From positions 372,001 through 436,000 of the forward strand of contig NZ_CP119989.1 in the NCBI RefSeq assembly GCF_029338555.1: a stretch of DNA of 64,000 nucleotides, read 5' to 3'. The notes under the pieces are model-generated. The model made no database searches, was not told the DNA's origin, and worked only from the letters and a program-made list of their open reading frames with translations. Source of the DNA: Halobaculum marinum (GTDB taxonomy: Archaea; Halobacteriota; Halobacteria; Halobacteriales; Haloferacaceae). The position numbers and the translations under genes were made by a program. This document shows, piece after piece, positions 16,913 through 17,042 of this stretch; positions within the stretch are counted from its first letter, which is position 1, and every line of letters starts with the position of its first letter.

Positions 16913-17042
16913 ACCAGACCAGACCAGACCAGACCAGACCAGACCAGACCAGACCAGACCAGACCAGACCAGACCAGACCAGACCAGACCAGACCAGACC
17001 AGACCAGACCAGACCAGACCAGACCAGACCAGACCAGACCAG
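16913..17042. repeat. Pentanucleotide microsatellite (ACCAG)26
   Basis: Twenty-six exact, uninterrupted copies of ACCAG (130 bases; GGTCT in the direction of transcription) fill the gap between lysE (stop at 17059) and hisG (start at 16872). No frame through the array has a stop codon, and none has ATG, GTG or TTG. lysE and hisG are in the same reading frame at this copy number: the spacer is 186 bases, or 62 codons. Adding or removing one or two copies would change that frame. Confidence 0.97.

What the first reader, a model, noticed from the sequence alone, without database searches (positions are those of the whole stretch)
16913..17042. (ACCAG)26 array leaves lysE and hisG in one reading frame
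A perfect 130-base pentanucleotide array fills most of the gap between lysE and hisG. The array has no stop or start codon in any frame. The lysE stop and the hisG ATG are separated by 186 bases, exactly 62 codons, so both genes are in the same frame, divided only by one TGA. There is no TATA-like box between them, so hisG probably depends on a transcript through the repeat. Perfect arrays this long are unstable by slippage, and each copy change shifts the frame and changes leader length. This could be a contingency locus acting on histidine synthesis, or a neutral satellite.
Basis: partly seen in the sequence, partly recalled or inferred. Interest (0 to 1): 0.75.

Follow-up and report, generated by a model that had tools for sequence, protein, structure and literature searches.

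The report
Young microsatellite abutting archaeal hisG promoter
A salt-loving archaeon (Halobaculum) carries a perfect run of 26 copies of a 5-letter DNA word just upstream of a histidine-synthesis gene; it looks like a recent, probably neutral repeat expansion at the scar of a deleted gene, ending next to a conserved element that is probably the gene's own promoter, so the proposed on/off switch is unlikely though not excluded.

Summary
A perfect (ACCAG)26 array lies at 16913-17042 between lysE and hisG (both - strand), and 186 bases (62 stop-free codons) separate the lysE TGA from the hisG ATG. It is the longest perfect tandem repeat in 864 kb sampled from its own genome. None of 10 genus relatives has even four ACCAG copies, and it is the only array of six or more copies in 391 sampled genomes of its class.

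The switch interpretation is mostly not supported. The array ends where a conserved element begins: the 20-mer CCCGACGGACTCAAGGACGG is identical about 39 bp upstream of hisG in 8 of 9 Halobaculum relatives with hisG. There the upstream gene is divergent (an M48-like gene, a DUF4382 gene or srp54), so hisG needs its own promoter. This element sits where other haloarchaea have the BRE/TATA of hisG, but it does not match that motif, so its promoter role is inferred. In relatives an opposite-strand gene lies between lysE and hisG; here it is gone and the array occupies the gap.

Most likely: a species-specific, slippage-expanded microsatellite at a deletion scar, tolerated outside the promoter. 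The shared frame is a one-in-three coincidence. Copy-number variation could not be tested.

The parts
16913..17042 (.). (ACCAG)26 perfect pentanucleotide array; (CTGGT)26 on the lysE/hisG sense strand
16873..16912 (-). conserved hisG-proximal block CCCCGACGGACTCAAGGACGGCCCCGCCGTCCCCTCGGAC (-40 to -1 of hisG), the inferred hisG promoter; the 20-mer from -39 is identical in 8 of 9 Halobaculum relatives; contains GACGGC-CCC-GCCGTC
   Evidence: canonical motif not matched
16021..16872 (-). hisG, ATP phosphoribosyltransferase (283 aa)
17059..17745 (-). lysE-type translocator (228 aa)
17043..17058 (-). 16-bp spacer between the lysE stop and the array; inferred deletion-scar side (the M48-like gene that lies here in relatives is missing)
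17798..19186 (+). srp54, divergent upstream neighbour of lysE

Best explanation
A species-specific microsatellite that expanded, probably by replication slippage, in the short gap left when an opposite-strand gene (weakly M48-peptidase-like) was lost between lysE and hisG. It has no evident function. It is bounded on the hisG side by a conserved ~40-bp block that is most likely the hisG promoter, about 1-3 bp from the last repeat unit. hisG is therefore probably transcribed from a start downstream of the array, and copy-number changes would alter only the distance to lysE and the DNA just upstream of the promoter. Shown: the array, its absence in relatives, the conserved block, the divergent neighbours and the missing gene. 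Inferred: slippage as origin, promoter activity of the block, neutrality.
For: Perfect, uninterrupted 26 copies and nothing comparable elsewhere in the sampled genome point to a recent expansion. No ACCAG x4 in 10 genus relatives; only the own genome among 391 class genomes has six copies. The 20-mer at about -39 of hisG is identical in the own genome and 8 of 9 relatives, while positions beyond -40 are much less conserved. An 18-base core occurs only at hisG in the genome at 0-1 mismatch. In relatives hisG is divergent from its neighbour: M48-like gene, DUF4382 gene or srp54. The block lies where 69 aligned haloarchaeal hisG upstreams show AT peaks at -35..-32 and -28/-27, as expected for leaderless transcripts, which are 72% of protein-coding transcripts in Haloferax volcanii (PMC4983044). 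lysE-X-hisG order in relatives and X-hisG divergence in an outgroup (L017), with X undetected in the own genome, support loss; the sister G013 also lacks X here. In a family relative (G156) two copies of one element carry 5 and 4 CTGGT units, showing this unit changes copy number.
Against: The conserved block scores like background on a matrix built from other haloarchaeal hisG upstreams (-15.9 against a training median of 14.6), and no canonical promoter is seen in 250 bp upstream of hisG in the own genome. Its promoter role is thus inferred from position and conservation only. The empty search for gene X had no in-search positive control, as the tool noted. Neutrality was not tested: no isolates, reads or expression data were available. 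Node support for the sister relation is moderate (86).
Confidence: 0.75

Rival explanations
1. Promoter-spacing contingency locus: copy number tunes hisG transcription by changing the DNA just upstream of its promoter, comparable in layout to the TAAA tract upstream of meningococcal nadA.
For: The array ends 1-3 bp from the conserved block; a repeat upstream of a core promoter is known to tune expression in nadA (PMC2791445); the CTGGT unit varies 4 versus 5 in two copies of one element of a relative.
Against: No conserved element lies upstream of -40 in relatives for spacing to act on. The array is private to this species. hisG is a housekeeping gene. Haloferax volcanii equalises its chromosome copies by efficient gene conversion (PMC8223754), which would complicate switching within a cell if Halobaculum is alike.
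Confidence: 0.08
2. hisG is expressed by read-through from lysE, so the array is part of a lysE-hisG mRNA; the sense RNA (CUGGU)26 forms a long hairpin that may affect stability or read-through.
For: lysE and hisG are now co-directional with a short gap; no canonical promoter motif upstream of hisG; the sense array folds to -51.3 kcal/mol, z -13, while the antisense does not fold.
Against: The block conserved in relatives with divergent neighbours is intact here (29 of 30 positions of the genus consensus). Any repeat of a self-complementary unit folds strongly, so the z-score is not evidence of function.
Confidence: 0.13
3. Assembly artefact: the array or its copy number is wrong.
For: Contig ends overlap redundantly by tens of kb with about 0.1% discordance, so the assembly is unpolished at least there.
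Against: Discordances are 1-4 base indels, many in homopolymers (28 of 34 in C1, 20 of 39 in C3), whereas the array is perfectly periodic over 130 bp.
Confidence: 0.04

Closest known systems
Prokaryotic microsatellites (simple sequence repeats)
   Same: Short-unit, perfect, tandem, non-coding, species-specific; unit copy number varies between copies of an element in a relative.
   Different: Unusually long for a haloarchaeon: a survey reports that short-repeat satellites in Halobacteria are mostly multiples of three within genes (PMC6749651); this is a 5-bp intergenic unit.
nadA promoter TAAA tract, Neisseria meningitidis
   Same: Repeat tract upstream of a core promoter.
   Different: nadA has NadR operators flanking the tract and IHF binding (PMC2791445); no conserved element is seen upstream of this array, and the gene is metabolic, not a surface adhesin.

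Membership tests
Microsatellite / simple sequence repeat | Tandem perfect copies of a 1-6 bp unit | tested here: met
   26 perfect 5-bp units
Microsatellite / simple sequence repeat | Copy number varies by slippage between strains | not testable with these tools
   One genome per species is held; only indirect evidence, 5 versus 4 units in two copies of an element in G156
SSR contingency (phase-variable) locus | Repeat within a coding frame or between functional promoter elements, so that length changes expression | tested here: inconclusive
   Not within a coding frame; it borders the inferred promoter with no conserved element upstream; expression effect not testable
SSR contingency (phase-variable) locus | Repeat conserved at the locus in related genomes (supporting, not strictly defining) | tested here: not met
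   Absent from all 10 genus relatives
SSR contingency (phase-variable) locus | Copy-number change alters phenotype reversibly | not tested
   Needs culture work
Haloarchaeal BRE/TATA promoter (the block at 16873-16912) | Located at about -25 to -40 of the start codon of a leaderless gene and conserved | tested here: met
Haloarchaeal BRE/TATA promoter (the block at 16873-16912) | Match to the BRE/TATA sequence pattern | tested here: not met
   Score -15.9 at -40, background-like

The most novel reading that the evidence does not exclude
A private, length-variable array tuning an amino-acid biosynthesis gene in an archaeon through promoter-proximal spacing: an SSR contingency locus in Archaea.
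Probability: 0.07. Interest if true: 0.7.

Novelty: new member of a known kind. Interest (0 to 1): 0.25.

Why it matters
Long perfect non-coding microsatellites look rare in haloarchaea, and this one sits beside a conserved, motif-atypical hisG upstream block, so the locus is a convenient natural test of repeat stability in an archaeon that may be polyploid like its relatives. The conserved Halobaculum hisG block, which departs from the usual haloarchaeal promoter sequence, may be the more useful lead. If the array does tune hisG, it would be an archaeal contingency locus; the evidence here makes that unlikely.

Tried and rejected
Hairpin at the single-copy site as the cause of expansion: the joined flanks fold no better than about 31% of random window positions. 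ACCAG as a favoured unit: at least four copies occur in 5 of 170 family genomes, against 3 of 167 for the control ACACG; the tool's own backwards control is uninformative because ACCAG read backwards is the same cyclic repeat. Viral link: six or more copies occur in 14 viral contigs of very different base composition (28-66% GC), with no sign of relation. Rfam: no credible RNA family at the locus (one sub-threshold miRNA hit). Upstream matrix hits in relatives were read as the promoters of the divergent genes, from their distance to those starts. An early srp54 translation was out of frame (protein 3) and was corrected.

Full report
Observation. The window holds a perfect (ACCAG)26 array at 16913-17042 between lysE (17059-17745) and hisG (16021-16872), both on the - strand and confirmed by Pfam. 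The 186-base gap is 62 stop-free codons in the shared frame. The array is the longest perfect tandem repeat among 864 kb sampled from the genome, the next being 61 bp, and ACCAG x4 occurs nowhere else in the genome.

Host and relatives. Best HisG matches in named genomes are Halobaculum species (90-92% identity for H. gomorrense and H. litoreum). The genus group held ten other genomes; nine gave a hisG match. None of the ten has ACCAG x4. In the class sample of 391 genomes only the own genome has six or more copies; one incomplete family genome, G156, has a 14-copy array.

The conserved block. Immediately on the hisG side of the array lies a block running to the ATG. Its 20-mer CCCGACGGACTCAAGGACGG is identical in 8 of 9 relatives at -39 (in G011 at -38), while positions beyond -40 are much less conserved. 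At 0-1 mismatch an 18-base core occurs only at hisG in the genome. Coding is an unlikely reason, since in G011 the block is shifted by one base relative to the ATG. Upstream of hisG the relatives have a divergent gene: a weakly M48-like gene in six, a DUF4382 gene in two, and srp54 in one. hisG must therefore have its own promoter there, and the block is the only shared candidate.

Promoter caution. In 69 aligned haloarchaeal hisG upstream regions, AT-rich peaks lie at -35..-32 and -28/-27, fitting leaderless transcription, the majority mode in Haloferax volcanii (PMC4983044). The Halobaculum block sits at the same place but does not match the sequence pattern (score -15.9). Only G012 of the genus keeps the usual pattern. 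I treat the promoter role as probable, not shown. If it is wrong, read-through from lysE becomes the main rival.

Deletion scar. In seven relatives the order is lysE, then the opposite-strand M48-like gene, then hisG (with an added DUF4382-type gene in G011 and G017). The same M48-like gene lies divergent to hisG in Candidatus Halobonum (L017), so its presence looks ancestral. It was not found in the own genome (without a positive control) nor near hisG in the sister G013 (support 86) or in G016. The array thus occupies the place from which this gene was lost. That the repeat arose at or after the loss is inference.

Instability. In G156 two copies of one element carry five and four CTGGT units, so this unit does change in number. 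Copy-number variation at the hisG locus could not be tested. Gene conversion equalises chromosome copies in Haloferax volcanii (PMC8223754); whether that holds in Halobaculum is not known.

Sense RNA. The (CUGGU)26 strand folds into one long hairpin (-51.3 kcal/mol), the other strand not at all. This follows from the unit pairing with itself through G-U pairs and is not taken as evidence of function.

Conclusion. A real but probably neutral, species-specific microsatellite next to a conserved hisG upstream block. The shared reading frame is a one-in-three coincidence without consequence, because lysE ends before the array and hisG starts after it. Interest 0.25.

Noticed in passing
16873-16912 and the same place in L123-L131: Halobaculum hisG upstream block is near-invariant but unlike the usual haloarchaeal BRE/TATA; it contains GACGG-N5-CCGTC, which could be an operator. 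G012 alone has the usual GGGAAAGACAGTA form.
   Followed up: partly
own genome contigs C1, C2, C3 (L140-L144, L170-L179, L204-L212): Contig ends overlap redundantly by about 49 kb (C1), 48 kb (C3) and at least 37 kb in two pieces (C2), with 34 indels in the C1 overlap; it looks like an untrimmed circular long-read assembly.
   Followed up: yes
L118, L119 (G156): Two copies of one repeated sequence carry 5 and 4 CTGGT units; the flank resembles an IS605-type end (from memory, not tested).
   Followed up: partly
10164-10314: Two near-identical copies (96%) of a 72-bp unit in tandem.
   Followed up: no
L129 (G016): Only a C-terminal remnant of lysE (about residues 190-228) remains upstream of hisG, suggesting repeated decay of this region in the genus.
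   Followed up: no
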